Assembly (NCBI GenBank): GCA_023053575.1
Contig: JAKZAP010000005.1
Location: forward strand, 6,076,001 to 6,140,000
Reading direction: 5' to 3'
Source: Branchinecta lynchi
Taxonomy: Eukaryota > Arthropoda > Branchiopoda > Anostraca > Branchinectidae
DNA: 64,000 nucleotides
Under the pieces are notes generated by a model. The model saw only the letters and a list, made by a program, of their open reading frames with translations. It did not search any database and was not told the DNA's origin. Shown here one piece after another: positions 809 through 61,679 of the stretch. The translations under genes and the position numbers were made by a program. Every line of letters begins with the position of its first letter. Within the stretch, counting starts at the first letter, position 1.

Positions 809-816
809 GTCTAGGA

Positions 817-1581
817 CAGTGATTCTCAAACTTCTCCGTACTACCAAGAACAAATAATCAGACTGTCTGACTATTTGTTATTGGGACTACTTACACCTAA
901 TCAATTTTCAAATAATTGCATAATTCAAATGTTTTTGACAAATCGTTGCTTTAATACTTTATAACCATGATCGGAACGTCAAAAAACGATATTTATTGTC
1001 GTCAGTGATAAGACATAAATGTGTATCTCAAATTGCGTACGATGGGGTATTTGATCTTGAGGAAAGTATTGAAACTAAGTCAGAAGAGTCAAACACGATT
1101 GAGGCAATATACTAAGGTAGCGTTCAGGCCAGTATCCAGGAATTTATTTCGGGGGGGGGGGGGGAGGGTTGCCTGCCGGTTGGACAAAAAAGAACAAAAA
1201 ATACATAGATCAGAGGGAAAACCCTATAAAAATCGATTATTTTGTATGTTTTTTTTGGGGGGAGGGGGCTGAACCCCTAACCCCCCGCCCCCCCTCCCAG
1301 GATACGGCCTTGGTAGCGTTCCAGTGAAGTTATTACAAGTTATGATGATAAGAGGAGGGCGAGCACCGTATTGTAGTTAGCACGCTCTCCTCGCCACCAT
1401 CATAAGTAAATCGTAACAGTCGCAGAACGAAAATAATAAGTGTGAGGAGCCAATTTACGTATTACGGCGGGCTATAGAACGGTAATAATAACAAGAATAG
1501 TAACGATCGTAACTAATAATAAGTCGCTGGAACGGTTTCTCGTACCCTTTTGGGTAGACGCGGAACACTGGTTGGGAACTG
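817..1581. mobile_element. hAT-like element I (first of a tandem pair)
   Basis: The left end reads CAGTGATTCTCAAAC and the right end GGTTGGGAACTG, imperfect inverted ends of the CAGTGGTTCTCAACC type known from hAT elements. It is flanked by the 8-bp direct repeat gtctagga at 809-816 and 1582-1589, the duplication size expected for hAT. A stretch at about 1035-1070 is homologous, inverted, to 1685-1715 in the next element, so the two belong to one family. It carries a nested 188-bp element at 1125-1312. No transposase frame is visible, so it is non-autonomous. Confidence 0.72.
1125..1312. mobile_element. 188-bp G-rich hAT MITE, family C copy 1
   Basis: The ends are CAGGCCAGTATCCAGG and, inverted, CAAGGCCGTATCCTGG. 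The 8-bp direct repeat gtagcgtt flanks it perfectly at 1117-1124 and 1313-1320. The interior has a long G tract, a TTGGACAAAAAAG segment and a C tract near the right end. Its CA...TG ends and 8-bp duplication fit a hAT miniature element. Confidence 0.8.
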
Positions 1582-1589
1582 GTCTAGGA
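1582..1589. repeat. Shared 8-bp target duplication between two hAT elements
   Basis: gtctagga here is identical to 809-816 and 5161-5168. It serves as the right duplication of element I and the left duplication of element II. Confidence 0.75.
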
Positions 1590-2118
1590 CAGTGGCACTC
1601 AACCTGTGGTACGCGAGACCCTTGCAAGGGGTACGCGAAGGTCCCAAAGTCAATTTAGTCTGCAGCTTCACAGGTTTCACTGTTTTCCTCAATATCAGAT
1701 ACCCCGTCGTACTCAGTATTCCGCTAACATTTATCGGTGTCCTCAAGGTGTCATTTCTGCCGCGCTATCAGGGAAAAATAAGGCTCTTGGTCTAGATTAG
1801 AAACACAAATTCCAATGTAAGTAGGTAAGTAATAAGTAAGTAATTTATTTATAACCCGCCGTTTATGTGGATGTAGAAGCCCGACCACTGAACTAGAGAC
1901 TGTCTAAGTTGTTATGCCAAGAAATCGGAACATCAACGTCTTCTTCTGCACACAGAAGTTCGCTGTTTGTCTCGACGAAAAATTTAAGCAGACTTTTCAA
2001 GCTTTGACAGGAAGTTCATTGGTTTCTTCGGGGACCAAAAGCCTGCACACAGTTCACTCTTTTAAAACCAGGACTGGATCTGCAGATTGTCCTATCTCCT
2101 TGCTTGCGGATGTTTGAG

Positions 2119-3520
2119 AAACAAGACCAAAGGTTTCGATGGGATCCCAAAAATTCAATATCTGATCCAGACAACTGGGTCGTGTCTTAGCCAGATCCAG
2201 TCTTCGCCAGACTCCTTGAACATTTTTACAATTAAAATTCAGAAACAGATTAAGGCCAAATAGCTAATCACCTGAGAAAACCAAGTTCAGATTTGGATTC
2301 AGCATGTGTGTTTACCCCTATAAGTCATATCTGTTTTGACGAAAACTTCCTGCCAATTTCCCGGTTCCGGCCGAACTCCAGAACTACTTGTCCGGCGAAA
2401 AAAGAAAGCTCAAAGACGAAATCAGGGTATCTTCTTTCCCCAGTAATGAACATCTAATCAACTTCAAATAGAAATTTAGCTTATAACAAATTTTCCGATT
2501 CCAGCCGGATTCCGGTCGAACTATATGTCCGGGTAAAATACGATTGTCACACAGGGACTCAGCATCTCTTCTTACCCCTAAATCGCTTATCTAATCAACT
2601 AGAAATAAAACTTTGACTTCCAACAGTTTTCCGGTTTTGGCCGGATTCCGGACGAACTACATGTCCGGGTAGAAACTTGTTTTCACATAAGTGTTCAGCA
2701 TGTCTTCTTGCCCTAAATCGAACATCCAATCAACTCCAAATTAAACTTTTAATTTTGACAAACTTTCCGGTTTGGGCCGGATTCCGGTCGAAATACTTGT
2801 CCGTCGAGAAAATAGTTTTCACGATCGTCTTCAGCATGTCTCCCTACCTCTAAATCGAGCATTTAATCAACTTCAAATAAAACTTTTACTTTCAACAAAC
2901 TTTCCGGTTTGGGCCGGATTCCGGGCGAAATACTTGTCCATCGAGAAAATAGTTTTCACCATCGTCTTCAGCATGTCTTCCTACCCCTAAACCTAACATC
3001 TAATCAATTTCAAATAAAACTTTTACCTTCAACAAACTTTCCGGTTTGGGCCGGATTCCGGGCGAAATACTTGTCCGCCGAGAAAATAATTTTCACCATC
3101 GTCTTCAGCATGTCTTCCTACCCCTAAATCGAACATCTAATCAACTTCAAATAAAACTTTTACTTTCAACAAACTTTCCGGTTTTGGCCGGATTCCGGGC
3201 GAACTACTTGTCCGATGACAAAATGGTTTTCACCATCGTGTTCAGCATGTCTTCTTACCCCATAATCAACTATCACATTAGCTGTTTCAAAATATTTTGT
3301 TTGTCCCTTAATTTCAATCCCCTCCCCCACCCCTAAATGTAGAGCTACAAAGCCCATCTACGAACTTGACTGGTCCGACGACCCAATGAACCTTCTCACC
3401 AAGTTTCATCAAAATATCTCATTCCCTTCGAGAGTTATCGTGCTTACAGACGGACGGACAGACGGACAACTTTTGCGATGTCATAGGTATCCCTCCACTT
3501 ACGTTTTGGGATCCCAAAAA
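2119..3520 (-). repeat. Cassette A copy 1, with 137-bp tandem units
   Basis: The left border is acaagaccaaaggtttcgat followed by gggatccc; the right border is gttttgggatcccaaaaa. The interior is a run of units containing 'actttccggttt.ggccggattcc' and 'cttgtcc'; the clearest three start 137 bp apart (2772, 2909, 3046). Because 137 is not a multiple of 3, the similar open frames seen in each unit fall in different frames and are not a gene. The part nearest 3520 carries GACGGACGGACAGACGGAC and the GATGAAACTTGG core (minus strand). Confidence 0.8.
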
Positions 3521-4139
3521 TGAACAAATCGTCGGTGTCAAGCGTAAACCACGTATCTCCCTTTTCGAAACTTATCAGGAGGTGAAAAAAACATAATAAC
3601 TTTTTGTCGTTAGTAGTACAGCCCCCTATGTTAATCCAAGATACGTGGTTTACATCTTGGTTGTATCTCCCAAACTATCAGTCGGAGGCAATCTAGATAG
3701 GCACCGTTCGACGCAGAATCTTTCGGCGAGTAGAACTGTGTCAAAAAAGTGGAAATCGCTAATTTGACCATATACGTCGTTTCCTCTCGACACCGACGAA
3801 ATCTCTCCATGCAAGATTTCCTGACGGACAAACCGTCCTGAATTCAAAAATGTCTGCTGTCATCAAGAAATTAAAGTTTTGGCTTGAAGATTCGGAGAAA
3901 CAGCGCAAGTGTCTTTCCGACCCTTGACAAGTTGGCGCGCGACGATGAAGTTAGCAACCCTAACACAATTTATGTTTTGCGTTCGGGAGCATCTGATCAA
4001 AGTTTCGAAATGAACTTGTTCCGTTTCTACCATATGCCACGACCCCAGATAGAACCCAGGACTGGATCCAGAATCCATTCACTGGAAACGTAATCTCTTA
4101 GCGACAAGCTCACGAAAAATCTGACACAACTTGCAACTG

Positions 4140-4523
4140 CACTGACTAAAGTTTCATAACAGATTGCACATAACACTTTCAGGAATAACACCTTTTCACT
4201 TAGAAATAAAGTGTTATGACCAATTAAGTTTATACTATTTTCGTGCCTAGATCTCCAACAACATCTTCATAGGTAAAAATACCACACTGTCAGAGGTTAC
4301 ATAGCGACAACAGAAGGATGCGCGGTTTCAACAGATAACACTTTGGGATGTTATCTGTTATGTTTCTTTCGTTCCTGTTAGTATTTTTACCAATTGAAGG
4401 TGTTGCTGGAGATCTAGGCACGAAATAGTGTAAACTAAATTGGTCATAACACTGTATTTCTAAGTGAAAAGGTGTTATTCTTGAAAGTGTTATACACTAT
4501 CTGTTATGAAACTTCTGACAGTG
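4140..4523. mobile_element. Foldback element, CACTGTCAGA family copy 1
   Basis: Two arms of roughly 140 bp are inverted copies: 4140-4280 matches the reverse complement of about 4385-4523, including gtttcataacag, aacaccttttcacttagaaat and cgtgcctagatctcca. Between the arms lies another copy of the terminal motif (cactgtcagaggtt at about 4287) with atgcgcggtttcaacagataac, as if a related element sits inside. No coding capacity. Confidence 0.75.
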
Positions 4524-4780
4524 CGATCGTACCTTGGCACTGAAATTCGAAAATCTATGAATTCCCTAGTTTTGGTCCGAGGTACAAGGAGAATACAAAT
4601 AACTAAGTGGAATCGCCACGTCTATTTTACTATCGTTCGGAGCTACCTTTGCGGAGTCTCCTTTTCAGTAAACTCTTTGACCAAATCAAAAACCCCAAAA
4701 CAGAAACAAGCTGAATGTACAAAAAAATCTTATTATTGCCGTTCGCGCCAAGGGTCGACAAAATCTTAGCTACAAAGCAG

Positions 4781-4970
4781 CAAGGCCGTATCCAGGGGGT
4801 GGGGGTTAGGGGGTTGACCCCCCCCCCCGAAACATACAAAAATGATCATTTTTATAGGCTTTTCCCACTGATATATATGTTTTTGTACTTTTTTGTCCGA
4901 CCAACAGGCAACCCCCCCCCCCCCCGAAAGGCAAAACCACCCCCGAAATAAATTCCTAGATACGGGCCTG
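4781..4970. mobile_element. Family C hAT MITE copy 2
   Basis: The ends are CAAGGCCGTATCCAGG and, inverted, CAGGCCCGTATCTAGG. The 8-bp direct repeat caaagcag flanks it at 4773-4780 and 4971-4978. It is in the opposite orientation to the copy at 1125 and has the same G/C tracts and GTCCGACCAACAGGC segment. Confidence 0.8.
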
Positions 4971-5200
4971 CAAAGCAGCCTCAAGTTTCCCATTGATTTT
5001 GTATGTATTTTACTCATTTATACATTGTCATTTGTGACAATAAATATTGTATTTTTGACGGTTGATCTCAGTAAAAAATAGTAAATCTATCATTTTTCAA
5101 AAAGGAACCCTTTTGAACTTTGATTAGGGTACGGGGTACGGAAAAGGTTGGGAGCCACTGGTCTAGGATATGCAGGCAACTAATGGAAATGAAGTTGTAG

Positions 5201-7591: not shown

Positions 7592-8440
7592 GTTTTTGGG
7601 ATCCCAAAACGTAAGTGGAGGGATACCTATTACATAGTAAAAGTTGTCTGTCTGTTCGTCTGTTAGCACGATAACTCTCGAAGGAAATGATATATTTTGA
7701 TGAAACTTGGTGTGAGGACTCTTTGGGTCAAGGGTAAGTCAAGTTCGTAGATGGGTTCTGTAGCCCTACATTTAGGGATGAGGGTTCAAATTAAGGGGCA
7801 AACAAAGTATTTTTAAACAGCTAATGTGATAGTCGATTATGGGTTAAGAAGACATGCTGACCACGAATATGCAAACTATTTTCTCGTCCGACAAGTAGTT
7901 CGCCCGGAATCCGGCGACAACCGGAAAGTTGGTTAAAAGTAAAAGTTTCATTTGAAGTTGATTAAATGTTCGAGTTAGGGGTGAGCAGACATGCTAAACA
8001 CTTATGTGATTAGCATGTTCTTCCTGGACAACTAATTTGCCCAGAATCCGGCCAAAACCGGATTTTTTTTAAATTGATAAGTTTTTATTTGAAGTGATTA
8101 GATTACAGATTTAGGGGGAAGAAGAGACGCTGAGTCTGTATATGACAATAATTTTTTAACTGGATATATAATTCACACAGAATCCGGTTGTAACCGTTAT
8201 TGTTTAGAAGCTAAAGTTTTATTTGAAATTGATTAGATCTGCTTTACTAAGAAGGAGATACCGTACGCTGAATTCGATTCTGAATTTTCTTTTCTTGCTT
8301 GACAAGTAGTTCGCTCGGAATTCGGCCGAAACCGGAAATTTGGCAAAAAGTAAAGCAGCAAGTTTCGATCAGTATCGTCAAAATAGATATGGTTTTCTCT
8401 TTGGGATCTTTGGGATCCCATCGAAACCTTAGGTCTTGTT
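7592..8440 (+). repeat. Cassette A copy 2
   Basis: It begins tttttgggatcccaaaacg and ends gggatcccatcgaaacctta plus ggtcttgtt. It has the GTCTGTCTGTTCGTCTG run, the GATGAAACTTGG core and about three degraded internal units with CAAGTAGTTCGC and CCGGAATCCGG. Confidence 0.8.
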
Positions 8441-11814: not shown

Positions 11815-14618
11815 ATGGCACTTGCCCTTCAGCCAAGTGCCATATAGCGATCGCAATTTTCGTCCGTCAGTCGGTCGGCCGGTCCGGGTTTTGCAGTTTG
11901 GGCACTTCCACATAAGCTAGGACGATGAAGCTTGGCAGGCATATCAGGGACCCCAAAAGATTAAGTTGGAAATAGTCACTTCCCCAATCCGAGCATCGTG
12001 TGGGGAGTGGAGGGAGAGGGAATCCGGAATCTTGAGGTATTCTTAACTTTTGAACGGGTGATAGGATATTAGTGAAAGTTGATACTTGAAAAGGCCTCGT
12101 GTCTCAGACGACCAAGTTAAAATCCGGACCGCATCCGGTGACTTCGGGGGGAGTTGGAGGGAGGAACCCGAGATATTGAGAAACGCTTAGAGTGAATCGG
12201 GATGACACTTGTTCGGAAGAGCAAGCAAAAGTCCTAGATATAGCATTGACGTAACCGGGCCGGATTCTGGCACTCTGGAGGAAGTTGGGGGGGGGGGGTG
12301 GAATTCCGGTGATCCCGCGAGCTCGTTACTTCCTAATATGACGACCTAATAGGACGATGAAACTTGGCTGGTATATCAGGGTCTCGAACAAGCCATCTTG
12401 AGAATAGTCGTCTGTATGATCCGACCATCGTGGGGGGGGGGGGGGGGGGCGTAGGAATGGTGAATGCGGAATCTAGTGACATTAATAACTTTTGAATGAG
12501 TGATCGGATTTGAATGAAACTTGGCAAGTGGAAAGAGGTGTCGTCTCAGATGTTCCATATCAAGTTCGGGCTGGATCCGATACTGTTGTGTTTTTTTTTT
12601 TTTGGGGGGGGGGAGGGTTTCACCAGAAAATTTCGTGAAACGCTTATAGCGTCCAGGGATTGGGATGGGATTTGGTGGGAAGAACAAGCATAAGCCCTGG
12701 ATACGTTCAGACAGAACTAGATCGTATCGGGACTCTTTTTTTTTTATTTTTAAAAACTATCCTGTTGTAGAAAAATGCTCTCCCATTGATGTAAGGTTAT
12801 TGTTGTACTTCTGTATAGGTTGTCCAACTGCTGTAAGTGGGTCAGTGATGTTTTAATTAGTGACGATTTTACTATTTCGGGCCCAAGGAGGGACTCTTTG
12901 AGGGGAGTTGGAGGGGGTATCCCGAAATTCCGTTGATAGTGTTTTTGGATACTTCCAGATGTGCTAAGGAAGATGAAATTGGCATGAATATTAGTGACCG
13001 ACCAACTAGACTTAAGGACCTGACACTACGCCGTATCACTTTAGGGGGAGTTAAGGGAAGGGATCCGGTAAATACTGATTTACATAGATTGCGAACGGGT
13101 GATGTCCGATTCGAGTGAAACTGTGTGGATGTTAAGAACGAATGACCTAGATATGCAAAACATGTCTTCGAGTCCTCAAGACTCAACAAGACCAGAGCTT
13201 TCGATGGCATCCCAAAAATTTAATATTTGATCCAGACAATCGGGTCTTACAGAGATCCTGTCTTCGCCAGACTCCTTGAGCACTTTACTAATAAAATTTA
13301 GAAACAGATTAAGGTAAATAGTAAGTTCAAATATGGATTCACCATGTGTTTTTACCCCTATAGCCAGCCTCATGTCTACTTTGACGAAAGTTTCTGCATT
13401 ACTTCTGCCAAATTTCCGGTTTCAGCCCGATTCCGTAACTACTCGTCATGCAAAAAAAATTCAAAAACGGATTCAGCGTATCTCCTTACCTCCAAATCGA
13501 ACCTCTAATTAACTTCAGATAAAACTTAAACTTTTAACAAATTTTCCGATTTCAGCCGGATTCGTGGCGAACTATGTGTCCAGGTAGAAAATGATTGTCA
13601 TAGACAAATTCACCATGTTTTCTTACCCGTATATCGAACACCTAATGAAATTCATATAAAACTTTTACTTTTAACAAATTTTCCGGTTTTGGCCGGATTT
13701 CGGGTGATCTACTTGTCCACCGAGAAAATACTTTTCATATTCGGATTCATCATGTTTCCCTATCCTTCCTGTCCCATCCTAATTAACTTAAGATTAAAAT
13801 TTTACTTTTGACAAGTTTTCCGGTTTCGGCCGGATTCCTGGCGATCTACTTGTCCGACTAGAAATATATTTTCATATTTGGATATCTCATCAACTTCAGA
13901 TTAAACTTTTACTTTTAGCAAACTTTCCGGTTTTCGCCCGATTCCGGGTGAACTACTTGTCCGGCGAGAAAATGGTTTTCATATTCGTGTTCAGCATGTT
14001 GTCTTACCCCTTAATCGACTATCTCATTAACTTTTTAAAAATATTTGTGTCGCCCCTTAATTTGAAACCCCTCCCCTAAATATGCAGCTATCGGGCCCAT
14101 CTACGAACTTGACCTTTCCCTTGACATGAAGAATCCTGACACCAAGTTTCATCAAAATATCTCATTCCCTTCGAGAGTTATCGTGCTGACAGACGGACGG
14201 ACGGACAGACTGACTGACGGACAACTTTTGTGATGTCATAGGTATCCCTCCATTTACGTTTTGGAATCCCCAAAATCCTCGGACTCGATTGAAACTTGAT
14301 TGCTGGTAAAAGAAGATGCTTTAGATGATCTGTGTTGTGTGTCTGAACCAGATTCGGCCGCTTTAGAAGGGGGGGGGGGGGGGGTTGAGGGGAAGGGGTA
14401 CCGGAAATAGTGTAGCACTTTTCGGGATCAAAGTAGTGGGATGATACATTTACCCTAGATGATCCAAGGCGATGCCGGGAACGCTCAGACTCGAGAGAAA
14501 CTAGATTTCCTATTTCTAGGTCCGATGTGGGGGGGGGATGGGGGTATTTTGTGACGTTCTCATGTACTTTCTTACATCACCACTCGTACATGTGCCAAAT
14601 GACCTCGTAGCTCTCGTT
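11815..14618 (+). repeat. Cassette B copy 1, old, with nested cassette A
   Basis: The 5' end is the hairpin atggcacttgcccttcagcc plus aagtgccatatagcgatcg; the 3' end is tcgtacatgtgccaaatgac plus ctcgtagctctcgtt, a diverged form of the fixed B 3' end. Between them are degenerate 280-bp units (GGGGGAGTTGGAGGG, CCGGTGACTTC, GATGAAACTTGGC). A cassette A copy at 13184-14275 interrupts it. Runs of G occur at about 12285, 12432, 12603 and 14370. Confidence 0.7.
13184..14275 (-). repeat. Cassette A copy 3, nested in cassette B
   Basis: It begins caacaagaccagagctttcg with a decayed gggatccc and ends cgttttggaatccccaaaat. Several 137-bp-type units with TTCCGGTTTTGGCCGGATT lie inside. Degenerate B sequence is found on both sides, so A inserted into B. 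Confidence 0.7.
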
Positions 14619-16262: not shown

Positions 16263-17466
16263 TTTTCCGGATCCCAAACTTAAGTGGAAGGATACCTATG
16301 ACTTCATAAAAGTTGCGTGTCTGTCTGTCCGTCGTCTGTCAGCACGATAACCCTCGAAGGGGTTAAGATATAACTTGGTGTAAGGATCCATTGGGTCGCA
16401 GTACAGATCATGTTCCTAGGTGGGCCCTGTAGCCCGATGTGTTTTTTTTGTTTGTTTTTTTTTTTGGGGGGGGGGGGGCTATATTAAGGGATGAAGATCT
16501 TTTTTTTTCAAGCTGATGTGAGAGTCGAATTACGGATAATAAGACCTGCTAAATCCAGAAATGAACTTCATTTTCGCACCGGAAAAATAGTTCACCCGAA
16601 GTTCTATCTGAAGTTAAACAAAAGCTCGATACAACGGTAGAGAGATATGCCGAATCTGTTTCTGAACTTTACTTTTTGGCTGGACAAGTAGTTTGTCTGG
16701 AATCCGGTGAAAATCGGTAAATTGGTAGAACTGAAAGCTGGAAAAGTAGACGACCGGAATCTGGCGAAAACCGGAAATTCGCCAGGAGTAAAGTTTAATC
16801 TAAAATTGATCGGAATATCCTTATAGGAGCAAGAATACAAGCTGAATATTTGTGAACTTTACTTTCTTCCTGGATAGTTATTTCATCCGAAATCCGGCAG
16901 AAACCGCGAAATTTGATAGAAATAAAAAAAAAAGTTTAAGTCGATCGGAGCATCGATACGGGGCTAACAATATATGAATGAATGAATGAATGATTTATTT
17001 GCACATCCCCGTCAGAAAGCTAACCTGAGGAACCTTCGCAACATTTCTTCTTTCTTTAAAATCTTTACTTCCCACCATTTTAATAATCCATTTTGATCCA
17101 AATATGAGCCTTATTTTCTCACCGGAGAAGTAGTTTAACCGGAGTCCGGCTAAAACCGGAAATTTCGAAATAGTAAAATAAATTCTGATGTTGATCAAAT
17201 TTGGTTGCCCGTATCCAGGAATTTATTTCGGGGGGGGGGGGGGGGGTGGTGCCTGCTGGTCGGACAAAAAAAGTACAAAAACCACATAGATCAGAGTGAA
17301 AAGCCTATACAAATCATTAATTGCGTGTGTTTCGGGGGGGGGGGGGGGGTCGAATGATATCAAATATGCACAGGTTCGGCGAAGACTGCAAGACCTGATT
17401 TTCTTGTATAAAAAAGACCCGACAAATGTTTCCCTTTGGGATCCCATTGAAACCTTTGGTCTTCTT
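16263..17466 (+). repeat. Cassette A copy 4, degraded and interrupted
   Basis: It begins ttttccggatcccaaactta and ends tttgggatcccattgaaacc plus tttggtcttctt. Internal units are strongly diverged. A (GAAT)n-tailed retroelement fragment (about 16973-17100) and a partial family C MITE (17209-17350) lie inside. Confidence 0.65.
17209..17350. mobile_element. Partial family C MITE, copy 3
   Basis: It has the left end GCCCGTATCCAGGAATTTAT, a G tract and the CAAAAAAAGTACAAAAACC segment, but the right terminal motif is missing after the second G tract. Confidence 0.6.
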
Positions 17467-19849: not shown

Positions 19850-20380
19850 TTTTTGGGATCCCAAAACGTAAGTGGAGGGATACCTATGACATCGCAAAAG
19901 TTGTTCGTCTGTCCGTCCGTCTGACAGCACGATAACTCTCGAAGAGAATGAGATATTTTGATGAAACTTGGTGTGAAGATTCTTTGGGTCAAGTGTGAGG
20001 TCAAGTTCGTAGATGGGCTCTGTAGCTCTAGATTTAGGGGTGGGGGAGGGGGGTTAAAATTAAGGGACAAACAAAATATTTTTAAACAACCAATGTGATA
20101 GTCCGATTATGGAGTAAGAAGACATGCTAAACACGAATATGCAAAATATTTTCTCGTCTGACAAGTAGTTCGCCCGGAATCCGGCAAAAAACCAGAAAGT
20201 TGGTTAAAAGTAAATGTTTTATTTGAAGTTTATTAGATGTTTGATTTAGGGGTAAGAAGACATGCTGAACACGATGATGAAAACCATTAGCCTGGCGAAT
20301 ACTTGATCTGGCGAAGACAAGACCCAGTGTTTGGATCAAATACTAGATTTTTGGGATCCCATCGAAACCTTAGGTCTTAT
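19850..20380 (+). repeat. Cassette A copy 5, short form
   Basis: It begins tttttgggatcccaaaacgt and ends ttttgggatcccatcgaaac plus cttaggtctt. It has only one or two internal units, against about six in copy 1, so the internal number varies while the ends are constant. Confidence 0.8.
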
Positions 20381-39170: not shown

Positions 39171-40782
39171 ATGGCACTTGCCCTTCGGCAAGTGCCATAT
39201 AGCGATCGCAATTTCTGTCCGTCCGTCGGTCTGTCGGTCTGTCCAGGTTTTGCTAGTTCGGGCACTTCCAGATAAGCTAGGACGATAAAACTTGGCAGGC
39301 ATATCAGGGACCCCAAATGATTAAGTTGGAAATAGTCACTTCCCCGATCCGAGCACCGTGGGGGGAGTGGAGGGAGGGGGAATCCGGAATCTTGAGGTAT
39401 TTTTAACTTTTGAACGGGTGATCGGATCTCGATGAAACTTGATATTTGGAACGACCTCATGCCTCAGACGACCCACTTAAAATCCGGACCGGATCCGGTG
39501 ACTTTTGGGGGGAGCTGGAGGTGGCAACCGGAAATCTTGGGAAACGCTATGAGTGGAGGGATCGAGATGAAACTTGGTGGGAAGACACCTAGCAAACACT
39601 AGATACATCATTGACATAACCGAGCCGATTCGGGTACTGTGGGGGGAGTAGAGGGAGGGGGAATCCGGAATCTTGAGGTATTGTTAACTTTTGAACGGGT
39701 GATCGGATCTCGATGGAACTTGATACTTGGAAAGACCTCATACCTCAGACGACCACTTAAAATCTGGACCGGATCCGGTGACTTTTGGGGGGAGCTGGAT
39801 GGGGCAACCGGAAATCTTGGGAAACGCTATGAGTGGAGGGATCGAGATGAAACTTGGTGGGAAGACACCTAGCAAATACTAGACATGACCGAGCCGATTC
39901 GGGCACTGTCGGGGGAGTGGAGGGAGGGGGAATCCGGAATCTTGAGGTATTTATAACTTTTGAACGGGTGACCGGATCTCGATGAAACTTGATATTTGGA
40001 ACGGCCTCATGCCTCAGACGATCCACTTAAAATACGGACCGGATCCGGTGACTTTTGGGGGGGAGCTGGAGGGGGAAACCGGAAATCTTGGGAAACGCTA
40101 TGAGTGGAGGGATCGAGATGAAACTTGGTGTGAGGACACCTAGCAAACACTAGATACATAATTGACATAACCGAGCCAATTCAGGCACTGTGGGGGGAGT
40201 GGAGGGAGGGAGAATCCGGAATCTTGAGGTATTTATAACTTTTGAACGGGTGATCGGATCTCGATGGAACTTGATATTTGGAAAGGCCTCACACCTCAGA
40301 CGACCCACTTAAAATCTGGACCGGATCCGGTGACTTTTGGGGGAGCTGGATGGGGCAACCGGAAATCTTGGGAAACGCTATGAGTGGAGGGATCGAGATG
40401 AAACTTGGTGGGAAGACACCTAGCAAACACTAGATACATCATTGACGTGACCGAGCCGATTCGGGCACTGTCGGGGGAGTGGAGGGAGGGGGAATCCGGA
40501 ATCTTTAGGTATTTATAACTTTTGAACGGGGGACCGGATCTCGATGAAACTTGATATTTGGAAAGACCTCATACCTCAGACGACCCACTTAAAATCCGGA
40601 CCGGATCCGGTGACTTTTGGGGGGAGCTGGAGGGGAGAACCGGAAATATTGGAAAACGCTATGAGTGGAGGGATCGAGATGAAACTTGGTGGGAAGACAC
40701 CTAGCAAACACTAGATATGTCATTGACATAACCGAGCCGTGCCTACTCGTAACAAGTGCCATATGAGCTCGTAGCTCTTGTT
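39171..40782 (+). repeat. Cassette B copy 2, about five 280-bp units
   Basis: It begins atggcacttgcccttcggca plus agtgccatatagcgatcg, has the CCGTCCGTCGGTCTGTCGG run, then units starting near 39360, 39640, 39910, 40193 and 40476. It ends acaagtgccatatgagctcg plus tagctcttg. Units contain accggatccggtgacttttg and gatgaaacttggtgggaaga. Open frames within are repeat shadows. Confidence 0.88.
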
Positions 40783-43440: not shown

Positions 43441-43503
43441 GTGACAGCATTAATTGAAATCGGAATTACATGTTTCTGTGAAATAATAACTAATAGTCTA
43501 ACT

Positions 43504-43645
43504 CAGGCCCGTATCCAGGAATTTTTTTAATTTTATTTTTTTTTTGGGGGGGGAGGGGTTATTTCCTGCTGGTCGGACAAAAAAGTACAAAAAAACACAT
43601 AGATCAGAGGGAAAAGCCTATAAAAATCATTATTTGTGTATGTTA
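43504..43645. mobile_element. Partial family C MITE, copy 4
   Basis: Left end caggcccgtatccaggaatt, then a T tract, a G tract and tgctggtcggacaaaaaagt plus acaaaaaaacacatagatca. The right end is missing. Confidence 0.6.
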
Positions 43646-45473: not shown

Positions 45474-46612
45474 TTTTTGGGATCCCAAAACGTAAGTGGA
45501 GGGATACCTGTGACATCGCAAACGTTTTCCGTCCGTCCGTCTGTCCGTCTGTAAGCACGATAACTCTCGAAGGGAACGATATATCTTGATGAAACTTTAT
45601 GTGAGGATTTGTTGGGTCATTGGACAAGTCAAGTTCGTAGACGGGCTTTGTAGCCCTACATTTAGGGGTGGGGGACGGGGTTTAAATTAAGGGGCAAACA
45701 AAGTATTTTGAGACAGCTAATGTGATAGTCGATTATGGGGTAAGAAGACATGCTGCACACGATGGTGAAAACCATTTTGTCATCGGACTAGTAGTTCGCC
45801 CGGAATTCGGCCGAAACCGGAAAGTTTTTTAAGAGTAAAAGTTTTATTTGAAGTTGATTAGATGTTCGATTTAGGGATAGGAAGACATGCTAAACACGAT
45901 GGTGGAAATCATTTTCTTGACGGACAAGTAGTTCGCCCGGAATCCGGCCCAAACCGGAAAGTTTGTTAAAACTATAAGTTTTATTTCGAGTTGATTAGAT
46001 GTTTGATTTAGGGCAAGAAGACATGCTGAATACTTATGTGAAAACAATTTTCTACCCGGACATATAGTTCGCCCGGAATCCGACCAAAACCGGAAAATTA
46101 TTAAAAGTTAAAGTTTTATCTGTAGTTGATTAGATATCCGATTTAGGGGTAATAAAAGATGCTGAATCCGTGTGTGACAATTGTTTTTTACCCGGACATA
46201 TAGTTCGACCGAATCCGGCTGGAGTCGGAAAATTTGTTACAAGTTAAATTTTTATTTGAAGTTGATTAGATGTGCATTATTGGGGAAAGAAGATACCCTG
46301 AGCTCGTTTTTTAGCTTTCTTTTTTCGCCGGACAAGTAGTTCCGGAGTACGGCCGAAACCAGGAAATTGGCAGAAGTGGCAGGAAGTTTTCGTCAAAATA
46401 GATACGACTTGTAGGGGTAAACAGACATGCTGAATCCATATCTAAACTTGGTTTTCTCAGATGATTAGCTATTTGACCTTAATCTGTTTCTGAATTTTAA
46501 TTGTAAAAATGTTCAAGGAGTCTGACGAAGACTGGATCTGGCTAAGACAAGACCCAGTTGTCTGGGTCAAATATTGAATTTTTGGGATCCCATCGAAACC
46601 TTTGGTCTTGTT
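45474..46612 (+). repeat. Cassette A copy 6, long form
   Basis: It begins tttttgggatcccaaaacgt and ends tttttgggatcccatcgaaa plus cctttggtcttg. It has about five internal units, each with acaagtagttcgcccggaat or tatagttcgcccggaatccg and gttttatttgaagttgatta. Confidence 0.85.
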
Positions 46613-47859
46613 TTCCTTGCCATTCTTTATTGTGTGTTTAGCTGATAACCCGTGTGTTTCAACTAGCTAGTTGAACTAGAACTAATGCCAAGACCGACCT
46701 TTCTGTAACCACTAACTATCGATTTTAAATTATTATGTAGACCACCAATGCTTTTAGGAGGTCGACCGCATTAGAAACGAAACTGAGACATCCTCCGCCC
46801 GCTAATTGAACTATTGACAGGACCGATGACCGAGATCAGAACCAATCTTGTCGCACACCTTTTAGTAGTGACATAGAGTCAGGCAGACGCTCTTTCTGGT
46901 GACCATTAGTTAATTCACTACTAAACGTAAGAAAATTAACAGTGTGACGGTAGCAGTCGCTTTAAACTATAACTTGCCTCGGGTCAACCCGGCTTCAAGG
47001 GGTTGTGATTTCGGTTGAAGAACAGAGTCGAAGGCAGCCGAAATTTCGTCCTTGCAAATTTGAACAGGTATTTTAGTTTCTAGGTTTATTCTGCAAGCCC
47101 TATTTCCGATTGCGCCTCAGCTATTTACGGAACCTGTTCTTTCTCTTATGCATGCTAATGAACGGGACAGAATTACAAATTGAAATTTGGCGTGCTTTTC
47201 ACAATTAATTTCCTTCCCTCCTTCGATAGAACTGACAGAAATTGATCATTAACTTAATAGTCCGTGTGACAGGAATAATTTGACAAAGCAGCCCACCGAC
47301 TCCTTGAGTGTTTAAAACAAATCCCACGTCTTATTAGCTTCTAATTCAGCGTAGAGACGCGGCTAATTTGGCTAAGTGCCTGGGCTGGTGTTTGGTATTG
47401 CATCGTGGAATGATGTGCAAGTGTCACGAAACATGCCGCATATGAGAATAACAGAGACCTGCAACAGGACAGGACCCTGGAACGACACGCTACTTACGTC
47501 AGTGCCAGAAGGATGTTTGTTTCTTTTTTTAGTCTCTAGTAAGGAATTCAAAAACTATCATCAAGTTTGAGTATTCTTTGGTTAGGTTTTAGTTTAGGTT
47601 AGGTTGTGTTTATTTTTCTTTTGAACTGAATATGAAACAAACAAGTTATAAAGAAAAATAATATAGAATAAATAGAGTGACATGTAAACTACGTCTATGT
47701 TACTATAAATACTGTAAATACCTGCTTTATTTATCTTATCGAAATCGTGTAAACCCCGTAGGCTTGTTCCAATACACTACTGGCTTTACTTTCATCAATC
47801 TTGAAATGTATTTCGTTTATTATGACTTGTTCAAACGCACTAATGTCAAAGTCATAACT

Positions 47860-48622
47860 CAATCCCTGCCCCTAGGGTTATCGGAACCGGTCCGGACACG
47901 AGGTGGGACATCCGCGACCCGAGCTCTCTCCAGCTGCCAAGTTTAATTTGTGTCCGATGTCCCTTTCGAAAGTTATGCTTGCCTCAAGATCCTGAATTTC
48001 CCTCCCTCCTCCCCTCCCCCCCTCCCCACCCCCGATTTTCCGACCAGGGAAATGACTATTCTTAAGTCAATCTGGTCGGGTCCATGATACGCCTTCCAAG
48101 TTTCATCGTTCTAGCATATCTGAAAGTACCTCAAGTGATAACCGGATTTTCGGGACCCACCCTCAAACTCCCCCACAGTGCCCGGGTGCGATCCGATAGT
48201 ACCAACGATTTATCTAGGACCTGTGCTTGTTCTCTCCATCATGTTCCATCCCGATCCATCCACTCTAAGTTTGTCAGGATATTTCTGGTTATCTCGCTCC
48301 CCCCACAGTTGTCGGATCCGGTCCGGACGTAAAAACGGAGCACGCATGTGTTCTTTCCGCTTATCAAGTTTGATTCAGATCCGATCACCCGTTCGAAAGT
48401 TACGCATGCCTCAATTTTCCGGATTCCCCTCCCTTCACTTCCCCCACAGTGGTCGAATCGGGGAAGGGACTATTTCCAAGTCAGTGTGGTTGGGTCCGTG
48501 ATATGCCTGCCAAGTTTCGTCGTCCTAGAATATCTGGAAGGACCCTAACTCGCCAAAACCGGACCGACCGACGGAAAAGTGATCGGATGGCACTTCGCCG
48601 GAAAGCAAGTCCCATAAAAAGA
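47860..48622 (-). repeat. Cassette B copy 3, truncated
   Basis: The hairpin end is at the right (ggcacttcgccggaaagcaa plus gtcccataaaaag). Units with caagtttcatcgttctagca and CCGGTCCGGAC lie inside. The fixed 3' end is not seen at the left. It ends about 110 bp before the TSP1 exon. Confidence 0.65.
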
Positions 48623-48735
48623 TGGCAGAGAAGAGCCGCTCTTGTCGTACTGCGCATCTCCTCGAAGGTGACTGGGAGTGGGATCGTTCCACTAGAGGCT
48701 TGCCTTTTTAGTTTAATTTGTTTTGTTTTGTCCAG

Positions 48736-48986
48736 GTGGTCGGCTTGCTCCCGTTCTTGCGGCGGTGGTATCCAGAAGCGAGAGCGTTTCTGCAACTCTC
48801 CTGTGCCATCGGGCGGGGGGAGCTATTGCCATGGTAACCGGACGCAGTATAAAGCTTGCCAGAAGCAGGAGTGCTCCAAAGACTCGTCGGACTTTCGAGC
48901 CTTGCAATGTGAGCAGCATAATGGGAAAAGCTACAATATTCCGGGAGTGCCAAACGATGTCACCTGGGTTCCGAAATATATTGGAA
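48736..48986 (+). CDS. ADAMTS9/20-like: ADAMTS9/20-type metalloprotease, exon f (thrombospondin repeat 1 and start of Cys-rich domain)
   Basis: Completes WQEWSACSRSCGGG, then IQKRERFCNSPVPSGGGSYC, HGNRTQYKACQKQEC and, after the repeat, FRALQCEQHNGKSYNIPG and VTWVPKYIG. The WxxW motif is a usual C-mannosylation site, CSRSCGGG fits the CxxS/TCxxG O-fucosylation consensus, and NRT is an N-glycosylation sequon. Six repeat cysteines are present. Acceptor ttgtccag|G completes Glu; donor TTGGAA|gtaagt, phase 1. 83 full codons, no stop. In this family the repeat binds extracellular matrix and aids substrate recognition. Confidence 0.97.
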
Positions 48987-50217
48987 GTAAGTAGAACCTT
49001 ATAGTCTTTCCTTTTGAGGGACTGCACACTCTCGATTTTGGTGGACACGAAGTGCCCGGTGCAGGGAAAGTGTCTACACCGAGTAGGTTCGGTGGGTAAC
49101 CCCTCACTTCGTTTTGAGTTCTCCAAATACAAGTTTCTCTGGCCCCTACCCCTGACAGATCTGGGCTTCCAGTCCACTGGTTCCTGGGAAACATTCCGTC
49201 AAACTCGTTCCGCCAACACAAAGCCTGCAAGAGCTCGCAGACTGCAGTAAAAGAGCAAATAAGTAGATAATAACGCTCATAAGCGTCGGTTTTGTTGGAA
49301 ATATGTCGCTACATCGTTCAGTGCTGTAGACCTTCCTGACGGCCTCTACCTCACCCCTTTTTGGAAAATGTTTCCCCAGTTTTGAATAGTATACGAGTGC
49401 GAATTTTTGCCAAAAATTGCTGCTATGGACGCGGAAGAACTACTTAGTTAATAGACTTCTCCGAACCTGTCACCGCAGTGAAAGATCTCCGTGCCCGGAT
49501 TCTTCGTTCGTGGAATCAACCCTGGATCACCTGCCTGTCGGCCAGCGGTGACTGCAGGAATACATCCCCTTTTGGGATACTTCGGAAGATCCTGAAAGTA
49601 ATGCAAAACTTCTGACGCCGTAATTTTGCGGTGTGGGGGTGCAAAAGCAACTGAGCAAGAATGAGCAAAAAATAAATAAAATATAGAGTTTGTGGCTTGA
49701 ATTTGGCTCTACTGTGTATTTGTTTTGTATAGAAGATTTAAAGGTTAACAGACTAGGGCTAAGATACGACAGCCTGATCACCCATCATATTTTTACTTAA
49801 TTAGGCTAGAAGAACCGACAAAAACGCGTTACTTCGTTACTTTATTACTCACGATTCTTGTATTTTAGCTGACGTAATTTCTCTTCCGTAACTGTTGTAC
49901 CTCTATACGGTCGTAGCTCTGTGTTTGACATGTTTAGCAACTACAGCGGCAGCCAATTGCCGTAATAACAAGTCATGGCGGACCAGGAAGAACTTGGCAT
50001 TCGCCCATATATGTTTGAGCCACAGTGCTCATCAGATTGGTCTGATGAATCGAACATTTCAAAATCTTCGCGTTGTTAGCCATGGAAACACACGCTTTTG
50101 CAGACATTGAAATTTTCCGCGACTCGCAGTAAAGTTATTGTCGTGCAACCAGCGGAGACTCCAAACGTCACTACTAGACTGCGCGACGTAAAAAACAAAA
50201 ATCCCTTACATGAGTCA

Positions 50218-53830: not shown

Positions 53831-54695
53831 GGTGCAAGTTTTTCGTCCGTCAGCGAAGGGAAAAGGACAAAATTCGGCTTGCTGCCAAATCAATATATTT
53901 TTGGAAACCCGTTTTCCGCTTCTATATTTTTCAGCACTGATCCGGTGACCAAGGAATGTGTAGTCATCCGAAAAAAATAGATCCTTGGGGCGTACTATTT
54001 TTTCTCAACCTTAAAAGACTTTAGGCCTTACAGCTTACTTTTTACGAATGACTAAACGTATGAAAGGAGCAGGTGGTCTCTATATTCGTCGTCTTTCTCT
54101 TTTGACAGGCCGTGTTCCCGTCAGCAGTTCCTTTGTAACAATGGTTTACGATATGAAGTCACCTTTTGAGACGAGTATCAAACATGAGTTTTCCATAATG
54201 GCACTTAGCTGTAATTACTGCATAAAGACCACACATGGTGCTGCTTGATACCATCTTATATGACCCGTATCTAATACATATCTTCGGAGCTAAATGGAAA
54301 ATTAGAGGAGAACGAGCCAACATTACGAGCGGCGCGTGAGCCAGATTTGAATTTGGGCGGGAATACGTCGTCACGAAGGTTATTGCGGTTCCAACTGATT
54401 CCTACCGCATTCGGCATTGCACTTGACTCTGATCGCAGATGCCTCTTTGATATTTTTTAACGGCCATTTATTGGTGGTCTCATTCTTTTTTCTTTCTTTT
54501 TTACGAGGAAGTTACTTGCTGGGTGTCCTCGTTATTAGGAACGGATGGTGGTTGTATTCTGTTGCGTTATGAATGACCATCTTAAGTTGTATTTGTCAGT
54601 GTTATCTTCTTACCATCAAGCTCCGTGAAGGATTAGAGACTATTTGTTTTATATATTTGAAAATTAAATTAACCCGAACCACCCATCAAGTCCCA

Positions 54696-55040
54696 CACTG
54701 TCAGAAGTTTCATAACAGATAACACGAGGATGCGCGGTTTCAACAGATGATACTTCGGATGTTTTTTGTTGTGTTTCAAAATGTTATGCATAATAAGCGT
54801 TACCATCAGGAAGAACCGAAAAACCGCCAAAAAGTATCTGCTGAGTTTTCCGACATCATGACGATAAGGAATACCCTAAGTAGATGCTTTGTTGGCTCTT
54901 CCTAGCAAAGCTTGTTATGAATAACATTTCGAGCATAATGTTTTCAAACACAACAGATAACATCCGAAGTGTTATCTGTTACGCTTTATTTGTCGAAACC
55001 GCGCATCCTCGTGTCATCTGTTATGAAGCGTCTGACAGTG
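54696..55040. mobile_element. Foldback element, CACTGTCAGA family copy 2
   Basis: Left arm cactgtcagaagtttcataa plus cagataacacgaggatgcgc; right arm its inverse, ending ttatgaagcgtctgacagtg. Arms are about 110 bp with a 100-bp centre. The arm sequence is the same as the inner part of the element at 4140-4523. Confidence 0.75.
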
Positions 55041-55049
55041 CGACCTTCC

Positions 55050-59077: not shown

Positions 59078-61679
59078 ATGGCACTTGCCCTTCGGCCAAG
59101 TGCCATATAGCGATCGCAATTTCTGTCCGTCCGTCGGTCTGTCGGTCTGTCTAGGTTTTGCTAGTTCGGGCACTTCCACATAAGCTAAGACGATAAAACT
59201 TGGCAGGCGTATCAGGGACCCCAAATGATTAAGTTGGGTGTGGGGAGTGGAGGGATTGGGAATCCGGAATCTTGAGGTATTTTTAACTTTTGAACGGGTG
59301 ATCGGATCTCGATGAAACTTGATATTTGGAACGACCTCATGCCTCAGACGACCTACTTAAAATCCGAACCGGATCTGGTGACTTTTGGGGGGAGCTGGAG
59401 GGGGCAACCGGAAATCTTGGGAAACGCTATGAGTGGAGGGATCGAGATGAAACTTGGTGGAAAGACACCTAGCAAACACTAGATACATCATTGACACAAC
59501 CGAGCCGATTCGGGCACTGTGGGGGGAGTGGAGGGAGGGGGAATCCGGAATCTTGAGGTATTTATAACTTTTGAACGGGTGATCGGATCTCGTTGGAACT
59601 TGATATTTGGAAACACCTCATGCCCCAGACGACCCACTTAAAATCCGGACAGGATCCGGTGACTTTTGGGGGGAGCTGGAGGGGGCAACCGGAAATCTTG
59701 GGAAACGCTATGAGTGGAGGGATCGAGATGAAACTTGGTGGGAAGACACCTAGCAAACACTAGATACATCATTGACATAACCGAGCCGATTCGGGTACTG
59801 TGGGGGGAGTGGAGGGAGGGGGAATCCGGAATCTTGAGGTATTTATAACTTTTGAACGGGTGATCGGATCTCGATGGAACTTGATATTTGGAAAGACCTC
59901 ATACCTCAGACGACCCACTTATAATCTGGACCGGATCCGGTGACTTTTGGGGAGAGCTGCAGGGGGCAACCAGAAATCTTGGGAAACGCTATGAGTGGAG
60001 GGATCGAGATGAAACTTGGTGGGAATACACCTAGCAAACACTAGATACATCATTGACATAACCGAGCCGATTCGGGCACTGTGGGGGGGAGTGGAGGGAG
60101 GGGGAATCCGGAATCTTGAGGTATTTATAACTTTTGAACGGGTGATCGGATCTCGATGGAACTTGATATTTGGAAAGACCTCATGCCTCAGACGACCCAC
60201 TTAAAATCCGGACCGGATCCCGTGACTTTTGGGGGGAGCTGGAGGAGGCAACCGGAAATCTTGGGAAATGCTATGAGTGGAGGGGTCGAGATGAAACTTG
60301 GTGGGAATACACCTAGCAAACACTAGATACATCATTGACATGACCGAGCCAATTCGGGCACTGTGGGGGGAGTGTAGGGAGGGGGAATCCGGAATCTTGA
60401 GGTATTTATAACTTTTGAACGGGTGATCGGATCTCAATGGAACTTGATATTGGGAAAGGCCTCATGCCTCAGACGACCCACTTAAAATCCGGACCGGATC
60501 CGGTGACTTTTGGGGAAGCTGGAGGGGGCAACCGGAAATCTTGGGAAACTCATATGAGTGGAGGGATCGAGATGAAACTTGGTGGGAAGACACCTAGCAA
60601 ACACTAGATACATCATTGACATGACCGAGCCGATTCGGGCACTGTCGGGGGAGTGGAGGGATTGGGAATCCGGAATCTTGAGGTATTTATAACTTTTGAA
60701 CGGGTGACCGGATCTCGATGAAACTTGATATTTGGAAAGACCTCATGCCTCAGACGACCCACTTAAAATCTGGACCGGATCCGGTGACTTTTGGGGGGTG
60801 CTGGAGGGGAGAACCGGAAATATTGGAAAACACTATGATCAATCAATCAATCAATCTTTATTATTCGATAAAACATTCCTTACGGTATTAACAAAAAACC
60901 GAATGTTTGTTATCTCGTCAAACATAACTATATACAATTGCGCTTTTAACATAGTCAAATATTCAATAATTACACAAGAACAAGGATTGCAACAAATTAA
61001 AACGCTAAAATCAATAATTAATATAATAAAGAGGAAAAGAATTTAAAATTTCGCGTTGAAAAAACTGACAAAGGAGGGGACAAAACTTCTTTCGTACCGC
61101 GCATGAATTGCCCGAATGGGTTGGAGCTTAGGAACTGGTTGTGCTGCCATTCTCTGTGCCCTTATGCGGTCGGGAATGTGGGGAGGGGGAAGGATGTGCC
61201 GATGGTTGGGGTCTTCCAGTAGTTGTTCACCAAACTTGGTAGAAAGTTGGTGGCTACGATTTGACAAAGATGCGAGACCAAACTCGTTAAGAAGGGAAAT
61301 GTACGGGATTTTGGGGGATTTTGATACTATTAGTAAAGATCGGTACTGGATCCTCTCGAGGCGTTCCGACTGCTCCCGTGTTAAACCGAAATGCCATACC
61401 GGACAGCAGTATTCAAGGGAAGGGCGAATGAACACAAGGTAAATGCGAAGGAGGTGGTGTTTCGGGGTGCCATGGCGGGAGAGCATTTTGAGAGACCTGA
61501 TGCCCATATTTGCTCTTTTCAGCATAGATTGTACTTGCTAATTATCCCACTTGAGATCTGAATGGAGGGAACGAGATGAAACTTGGTGGGAAGACACCTA
61601 GCAAACACTAGATATATCATTGACATAACCGAGCCGTGCTTACTCGTAACAAGTGCCATATGAGCTCGTAGCTCTTGTT
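59078..61679 (+). repeat. Cassette B copy 5, six or more 280-bp units, split by a LINE
   Basis: It begins atggcacttgcccttcggcc plus aagtgccatatagcgatcg and ends acaagtgccatatgagctcg plus tagctcttgtt. Units begin near 59240, 59521, 59803, 60085, 60366 and 60646. A LINE end at about 60838-61560 interrupts the last unit. Confidence 0.9.
60838..61560 (-). pseudogene. LINE 3' end inserted in the 280-bp array
   Basis: The minus-strand frame (160 residues from 61525) contains LLRIYLVFIRPSLEYCCPVW and QSERLERIQYRSLLIVSKSP, typical of the C-terminal part of Jockey/CR1-like polyproteins. A TAA lies just before it (DLKWDN-stop-QVQSMLKRAN). The 3' tail is (ATTG)n, read on + as atcaatcaatcaatcaatc at 60839. 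Most of the 5' part is absent, as in usual LINE truncation. Confidence 0.85.

What the first reader, a model, noticed from the sequence alone, without database searches (positions are those of the whole stretch)
809..5168. Two hAT-like elements in tandem sharing three identical target duplications
gtctagga occurs at 809-816, 1582-1589 and 5161-5168, each beside a CAGTG-type end. hAT duplications are 8 bp and normally differ between insertions, so three identical copies imply that one element inserted exactly in the duplication of the other, or that recombination between sister elements made a tandem pair.
Basis: partly seen in the sequence, partly recalled or inferred. Interest (0 to 1): 0.75.

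Follow-up and report, generated by a model that had tools for sequence, protein, structure and literature searches.

The report
Two jumping genes at one site
Two different transposons of the hAT kind most likely landed one after the other on exactly the same 8-letter target in an animal genome, because an insertion copies its own preferred landing site; similar arrangements recur elsewhere in this genome, and the process is already known from fruit flies.

Summary
GTCTAGGA lies at 809-816, 1582-1589 and 5161-5168, directly outside the CAGTG-type ends of two non-autonomous hAT-like elements: I (817-1581) and II (1590-5160). It is a target-site duplication (TSD). Right flanks of 32 related copies in the same genome carry other 8-mers, 27 of 32 with central TA, consensus about GTCTAGAC (Buster-type nnnTAnnn); GTCTAGGA is in the top 0.17% of genomic 8-mers under that motif. 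I and II are in opposite orientation and diverged, so a tandem duplication by recombination is out. Best explanation: double insertion. The first insertion duplicated a preferred target; a second element used one copy. It recurs: two outward-facing ends 8 bp apart occur at 17 places (reversed control 0); with spacing free from 0 to 30 bp, 8 of 9 pairs have exactly 8 bp. Both outer TSDs were found in 8 of the 17; 19 of the 23 outer sites found match their junction within 1 mismatch. The process is known in Drosophila (McGurk & Barbash, seen only through reviews). So this is a well-supported new instance of a known kind, between different subfamilies and in both orientations. Copy number, empty site and transposase remain open.

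The parts
809..816 (.). TSD copy 1 (GTCTAGGA), left outer
817..1581 (-). hAT-like element I, 765 bp, inverted relative to II; holds a nested MITE
   Evidence: ends and orientation
1582..1589 (.). TSD copy 2 (GTCTAGGA), shared junction
1590..5160 (+). hAT-like element II, 3571 bp, swollen by nested repeats
   Evidence: ends; nested repeats; no transposase family in 10 translated frames
5161..5168 (.). TSD copy 3 (GTCTAGGA), right outer
1125..1312 (+). nested hAT-like MITE with poly-G stretch inside I, TSD GTAGCGTT at 1117-1124 and 1313-1320
4781..4970 (-). second copy of the same MITE inside II, TSD CAAAGCAG at 4773-4780 and 4971-4978
2119..3520 (+). nested 1.4-kb dispersed repeat with a 137-bp tandem array, inside II
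4139..4524 (.). foldback-like inverted repeat (102-nt arms, 89% complementary) inside II

Best explanation
Double insertion at one target. A hAT-like (Buster-type) non-autonomous element inserted into GTCTAGGA, a close match to the preferred target GTCTAGAC, and so duplicated it. A second, related but different and oppositely oriented element then inserted into one of the two copies, which added a third. Shown: the three TSDs, the two pairs of ends, opposite orientation, the target motif in this genome, and recurrence of the arrangement at other loci. Inferred: that a Buster-type transposase supplied in trans moved both, and that the two events were separate. Which element came first is not known, because all three TSD copies are identical.
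For: Three identical 8-mers exactly outside four CAGTG-type ends. Right flanks of related copies: central TA in 27 of 32 (TA is 6.5% of dinucleotides in a 200-kb sample); GTCTAGGA is in the top 0.17% of 399,506 genomic 8-mers under that motif. Back-to-back ends with 8 bp between: 17 places, reversed-pattern control 0; 16 of 17 junctions have central TA. Free spacing 0-30 bp, exact ends: 9 places, 8 at exactly 8 bp. Outer TSDs: both found in 8 of 17 places, one in 7, none in 2; of the 23 outer sites 8 equal the junction, 11 differ by 1, 2 by 2, 1 by 3, 1 by 4. On the 17 outer sites known, summed mismatches were 15 against a lowest value of 26 in 100,000 reshufflings of partners. One other locus (L068) also has three identical TSDs. 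Of the 8 complete pairs plus the window, 4 of 9 are in opposite orientation.
Against: Three of the 17 places look like one true element beside a chance half-match (L073 left, L080 right, L081 left; contexts), so about 14 are good, and the outer sites of L080 and L081 show only that one element's own TSD; L073 is also one of the 8 exact pairs. Where only one outer end was found, only one of the two elements is shown to share the junction. Weaker candidate ends without a matching flank were set aside at L068, L070, L076 and L079; at L068 the two candidates for the left end tied (3 mismatches each) and the one with the matching flank was taken. Partners are slightly more alike than random pairings (mean end identity 0.68 against 0.65; 376 of 20,000 random pairings as high); L068 partners are mutual best matches, and II is the best match of I among the 17 other elements compared, though not the reverse (rank 14). 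The empty site, the genomic family of element I and the copy number could not be searched. No transposase was identified.
Confidence: 0.92

Rival explanations
1. Unequal or sister-chromatid recombination between copies made a tandem pair that shares TSDs.
For: Five of the eight other complete pairs are in the same orientation, as such recombination would give, and partners are slightly more alike than random pairs.
Against: I and II are in opposite orientation. The terminal 120+120 bp of I and II average 58% identity. In two other pairs a member is closer to a copy elsewhere than to its partner: L069a is 84% to L070b but 74% to L069b; L067a is 83% to L070b but 76% to L067b.
Confidence: 0.03
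2. A composite element (I plus II) moved as one unit, so the outer TSD belongs to the unit.
For: The outer ends 817 and 5160 are themselves an end pair with matching flanks.
Against: A unit transposed to a new site would have outer TSDs unrelated to the inner 8-mer; here all three are identical. In one search only the window itself matched across the whole query, but only 40 of 17,377 candidates were scored.
Confidence: 0.03
3. GTCTAGGA is part of the element family, not a TSD.
For: Several flanks and junctions in the genome resemble it (GTCTAGAC, GTCTAGGC), and one other pair has it as junction (L079).
Against: The flanking 8-mers of 32 copies vary at every position, least at the central TA.
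Confidence: 0.01
4. Alternative (reversed-ends) hAT transposition made the pair, as for maize Ac duplications.
For: Known for hAT elements and gives neighbouring copies that share one TSD (PMC3744419, passages read).
Against: That model predicts a non-matching flank at one end of the second element; in the window both outer flanks match, and in 7 of the 8 other complete pairs both are within 2 mismatches.
Confidence: 0.01

Closest known systems
Double insertion of transposable elements (McGurk & Barbash 2018, Drosophila melanogaster)
   Same: Elements back to back with a junction of TSD length that fits the target motif (reported for the P element), attributed to insertion-site preference; hobo, a hAT element, expanded to 16 tandem copies (as told in the reviews PMC9659126 and PMC12628747, passages read; the original paper is not held).
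   Different: Here the partners are non-identical subfamilies in either orientation, in a reference assembly of an unnamed animal, with all three TSDs still readable at several loci.
Tandem hAT-derived MITE insertions at inversion breakpoints of Atlantic cod (PMC12368964, passages read)
   Same: Tandemly placed non-autonomous hAT subfamilies.
   Different: The paper's main text has no occurrence of 'TSD' or 'target site duplication'; what the passages describe is tandem internal repeats at inversion breakpoints, not a shared-TSD test.
Adjacent insertions of MITEs in pineapple (PMC8449440, passages read)
   Same: MITEs cluster by adjacent insertion because they prefer the same kind of target.
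   Different: Mutator-like elements that target TA microsatellites, not an 8-bp TSD of a hAT element.
Buster family of hAT transposons (TcBuster, Mar)
   Same: 8-bp TSD with consensus nnnTAnnn (PMC3499496, PMC3517528, passages read).
   Different: No transposase was found here, so the family rests on TSD motif and ends.
Reversed-ends transposition duplications of maize Ac/dhAT (PMC3744419, passages read)
   Same: hAT copies near each other that share a TSD.
   Different: Those have one non-matching flank and duplicated host DNA; in the window I and II are separated by the 8-mer alone and both outer flanks match.

Membership tests
hAT superfamily (non-autonomous) | 8-bp target-site duplication | tested here: met
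   Three identical 8-mers at I and II; outer and junction 8-mers agree within 1 mismatch at 19 of 23 outer sites found at other loci
hAT superfamily (non-autonomous) | short terminal inverted repeats with CAGTG-type ends (motif recalled) | tested here: met
   II ends 14 of 16 bases alike; I ends degenerate
hAT superfamily (non-autonomous) | a related hAT transposase that moves the family | not tested
   Ten translated frames of II matched no transposase family; the genome was not searched for an autonomous relative
Buster family of hAT | TSD consensus nnnTAnnn | tested here: met
   27 of 32 right flanks of related copies have central TA; 16 of 17 pair junctions
Buster family of hAT | transposase falls in the Buster clade | not tested
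   No transposase sequence in hand
Double insertion at one target | three TSD copies around two complete elements | tested here: met
   the same at 8 other loci with 0 to 3 mismatches per outer copy
Double insertion at one target | spacing between ends equals TSD length | tested here: met
   8 bp in the window; 8 of 9 exact pairs at 8 bp among spacings 0-30 in the genome
Double insertion at one target | empty or single-element allele | not testable with these tools
   One assembly, no relatives held; the search for the joined flanks did not complete

The most novel reading that the evidence does not exclude
The Buster-type transposase of this genome re-uses its own duplicated targets more often than sequence preference alone predicts (for example because bound or neighbouring element ends attract it), so that element dimers and longer arrays are a regular product and a feedstock for satellite DNA.
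Probability: 0.15. Interest if true: 0.55.

Novelty: new member of a known kind. Interest (0 to 1): 0.36.

Why it matters
An insertion that duplicates its own preferred target leaves two fresh copies of that target, so double hits follow from target preference. This genome keeps at least 8 other loci where the junction and both outer flanks can still be compared, in both orientations and between different subfamilies. It offers a countable natural test of how far target choice alone explains transposon dimers, a proposed seed of satellite DNA.

Tried and rejected
Sister recombination, composite transposition, fixed subterminal sequence and reversed-ends transposition were considered and rejected (see rivals). 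Transposase remnants: 10 translated frames of II against Pfam gave no transposase; three weak, unrelated matches lay below their cut-offs. Scans of viral contigs (2) and genome contigs (1) for repeat and end patterns found nothing. A local look through 230,912 bases of fetched genome sequence gave four weak end matches with 3 mismatches each and no convincing element. The genome searches with element I (817-1120; 1320-1581), with the left end of II (1590-1820), for the number of ends and for the joined empty site did not complete, so the family of I, the copy number and the empty site are open, and the number of double hits expected under target preference could not be computed.

Full report
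WHAT IS THERE. The window lies in an unnamed 576-Mb genome (G000:C18:6076001-6140000); a thrombospondin type 1 domain at 48374-48991 and the many dispersed repeats suggest an animal (inference). GTCTAGGA occurs three times in the window, only at the places reported. By number alone that is unremarkable (19 of 100 shuffles reach three), but each copy abuts a CAGTG-type end. Two elements result: I, 817-1581, and II, 1590-5160.

ANATOMY. The left end of I resembles the right end of II, and the right end of I resembles the left end of II (local alignments; orientation scores), so I is inverted relative to II. No transposase was seen: ten translated frames of II match no transposase family in Pfam. 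II is swollen by nested repeats: a 1.4-kb dispersed repeat with a 137-bp tandem array (2119-3520; 40 further near-full-length rows at 97-98% identity, a lower bound because only the best candidates are scored), a foldback (4139-4524) and a poly-G MITE (4781-4970). The same MITE lies in I (1125-1312). The two MITE copies have their own, different 8-bp duplications, GTAGCGTT and CAAAGCAG, so they are independent insertions of a further hAT-like family (family by TSD length and ends only).

IS GTCTAGGA A TARGET DUPLICATION? The genome was searched with the last 190 bp of II: 1114 candidates, 40 scored, 42 rows, 71-84% identity apart from the window and one 39-bp row. Of the 41 rows other than the window I fetched the right ends of 37. 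Five were dropped because their end as fetched did not finish in TG (L040, L041, L045, L049, L064). The 32 left have 31 different flanking 8-mers (GTATAGAC twice), none of them GTCTAGGA; 27 of 32 have TA at positions 4-5 (6.5% in a 200-kb sample), with consensus about GTCTAGAC. That is the Buster-type motif nnnTAnnn (PMC3499496, PMC3517528; passages read). Left flanks of these 32 copies were not fetched, so their duplications are not shown on both sides. Under this motif GTCTAGGA is within the top 0.17% of 399,506 genomic 8-mers.

DOES IT RECUR? A pattern of two outward-facing ends with 8 bp between (up to 2 mismatches) finds 17 places; the reversed pattern finds none. The window is not among them, because the right end of I is too degenerate. 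Sixteen of the 17 junctions have central TA. As a spacing control, exact ends with 0 to 30 bp between give 9 places: 8 at exactly 8 bp, 1 at 21 bp. For the 17 places I fetched 800 bp on each side and a further stretch of 1.2 kb on 13 sides. Both outer ends were found in 8 of 17 (L066, L067, L068, L069, L070, L072, L076, L079), one in 7 (L074, L075, L077, L078, L080, L081, L082), none in 2 (L071, L073). Of the 23 outer 8-mers, 8 equal the junction, 11 differ by 1 base, 2 by 2, one by 3 (L067) and one by 4 (L082). On the 17 outer sites known before summed mismatches were 15; the lowest value in 100,000 reshufflings of partners was 26. L068 has GTCTAGCT three times without change, as the window has GTCTAGGA.

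LIMITS OF THAT COUNT. Three places are probably a true element beside a chance half-match (L073, L080, L081; contexts). At L080 and L081 the outer match shows only that element's own TSD, and L073 is one of the 8 exact pairs. Weaker candidate ends without a matching flank were set aside at L068, L070, L076 and L079; at L068 two candidates tied and the one with the matching flank was taken.

DUPLICATION OR TWO INSERTIONS? Among the 8 complete pairs 5 are in the same and 3 in opposite orientation; the window adds a fourth opposite pair. In two pairs a member is closer to a copy elsewhere than to its partner: L069a is 84% identical to L070b but 74% to L069b, L067a 83% to L070b but 76% to L067b. 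Ranked by their terminal 120+120 bp, the partner is the best match in 3 of 18 comparisons: L068 both ways, and I to II one way (II to I is rank 14). Against my reading, partners are a little more alike than random pairs (0.68 against 0.65; 376 of 20,000 random pairings as high). This fits related subfamilies active in the same period and leaves duplication open for L068. For the window, opposite orientation and 58% end identity argue it out.

MECHANISM. Insertion by a transposase that prefers a palindromic 8-bp target duplicates that target. Each insertion thus leaves two good targets where there was one, and a later element can use either. This gives three TSDs, either orientation, any mix of subfamilies and a spacing of exactly 8 bp, as observed. 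The order of I and II cannot be read from identical TSDs. As rough arithmetic (inference), one to two million sites in this genome score as well as GTCTAGGA, so some thousands of similar-age copies would give a few to a few tens of double hits without any special self-targeting. The number of copies could not be obtained (on that question unanswered).

KNOWN OR NEW. Tandem elements made by repeated insertion at one site, with TSD-length junctions that fit the target motif, were described for the Drosophila P element, and expansion of hobo (a hAT element) to 16 tandem copies is mentioned (McGurk & Barbash 2018, known here from two reviews, PMC9659126 and PMC12628747, passages read; the paper itself is not held). 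Tandem hAT-derived MITEs are reported from Atlantic cod inversion breakpoints (PMC12368964, passages read) and MITEs clustered by adjacent insertion from pineapple (PMC8449440, passages read). Five keyword searches were seen as listings, most listed papers were not opened, and most subscription journals are not held, so I make no claim that shared-TSD hAT pairs outside Drosophila are unreported. The finding is a clear instance of a known process; the genome-wide set of comparable loci is the added value.

Noticed in passing
1125-1312 and 4781-4970: A poly-G hAT-like MITE with ends CA(A/G)GGCC.GTATCC inserted independently in both elements, each with a perfect but different 8-bp duplication; partial copies at 17207-17347 and 43503-43644.
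   Followed up: partly
2119-3520; related stretches at 45474-46613, 13185-14276, 7593-8348, 19850-20288: A dispersed 1.4-kb repeat that starts AACAAGACCAAAGG, ends TTTTGGGATCCCAAAAA and carries a 137-bp tandem array; 40 near-full-length genome rows at 97-98% identity. It recalls array-carrying non-autonomous Helentrons of oyster (PMC7492417, search listing only); not tested.
   Followed up: partly
L080:64-102: A 31-bp stump of a hAT end lies between two copies of TTCTAAAG, directly before an element with the same TSD: possibly a double insertion whose first element was almost wholly lost.
   Followed up: no
39344-40739 and 59238-60838: Two tandem arrays of what looks like the same 280-bp unit, 5.0 and 5.7 copies, 91-94% matches.
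   Followed up: no
4139-4524: Foldback-like repeat with 102-nt arms; related pieces at 54693-54777 and 54946-55043.
   Followed up: no
L040/L045 and L041/L049: Pairs of copies at different places with the same 24 bp of flanking DNA, so perhaps duplicated segments rather than separate insertions.
   Followed up: no
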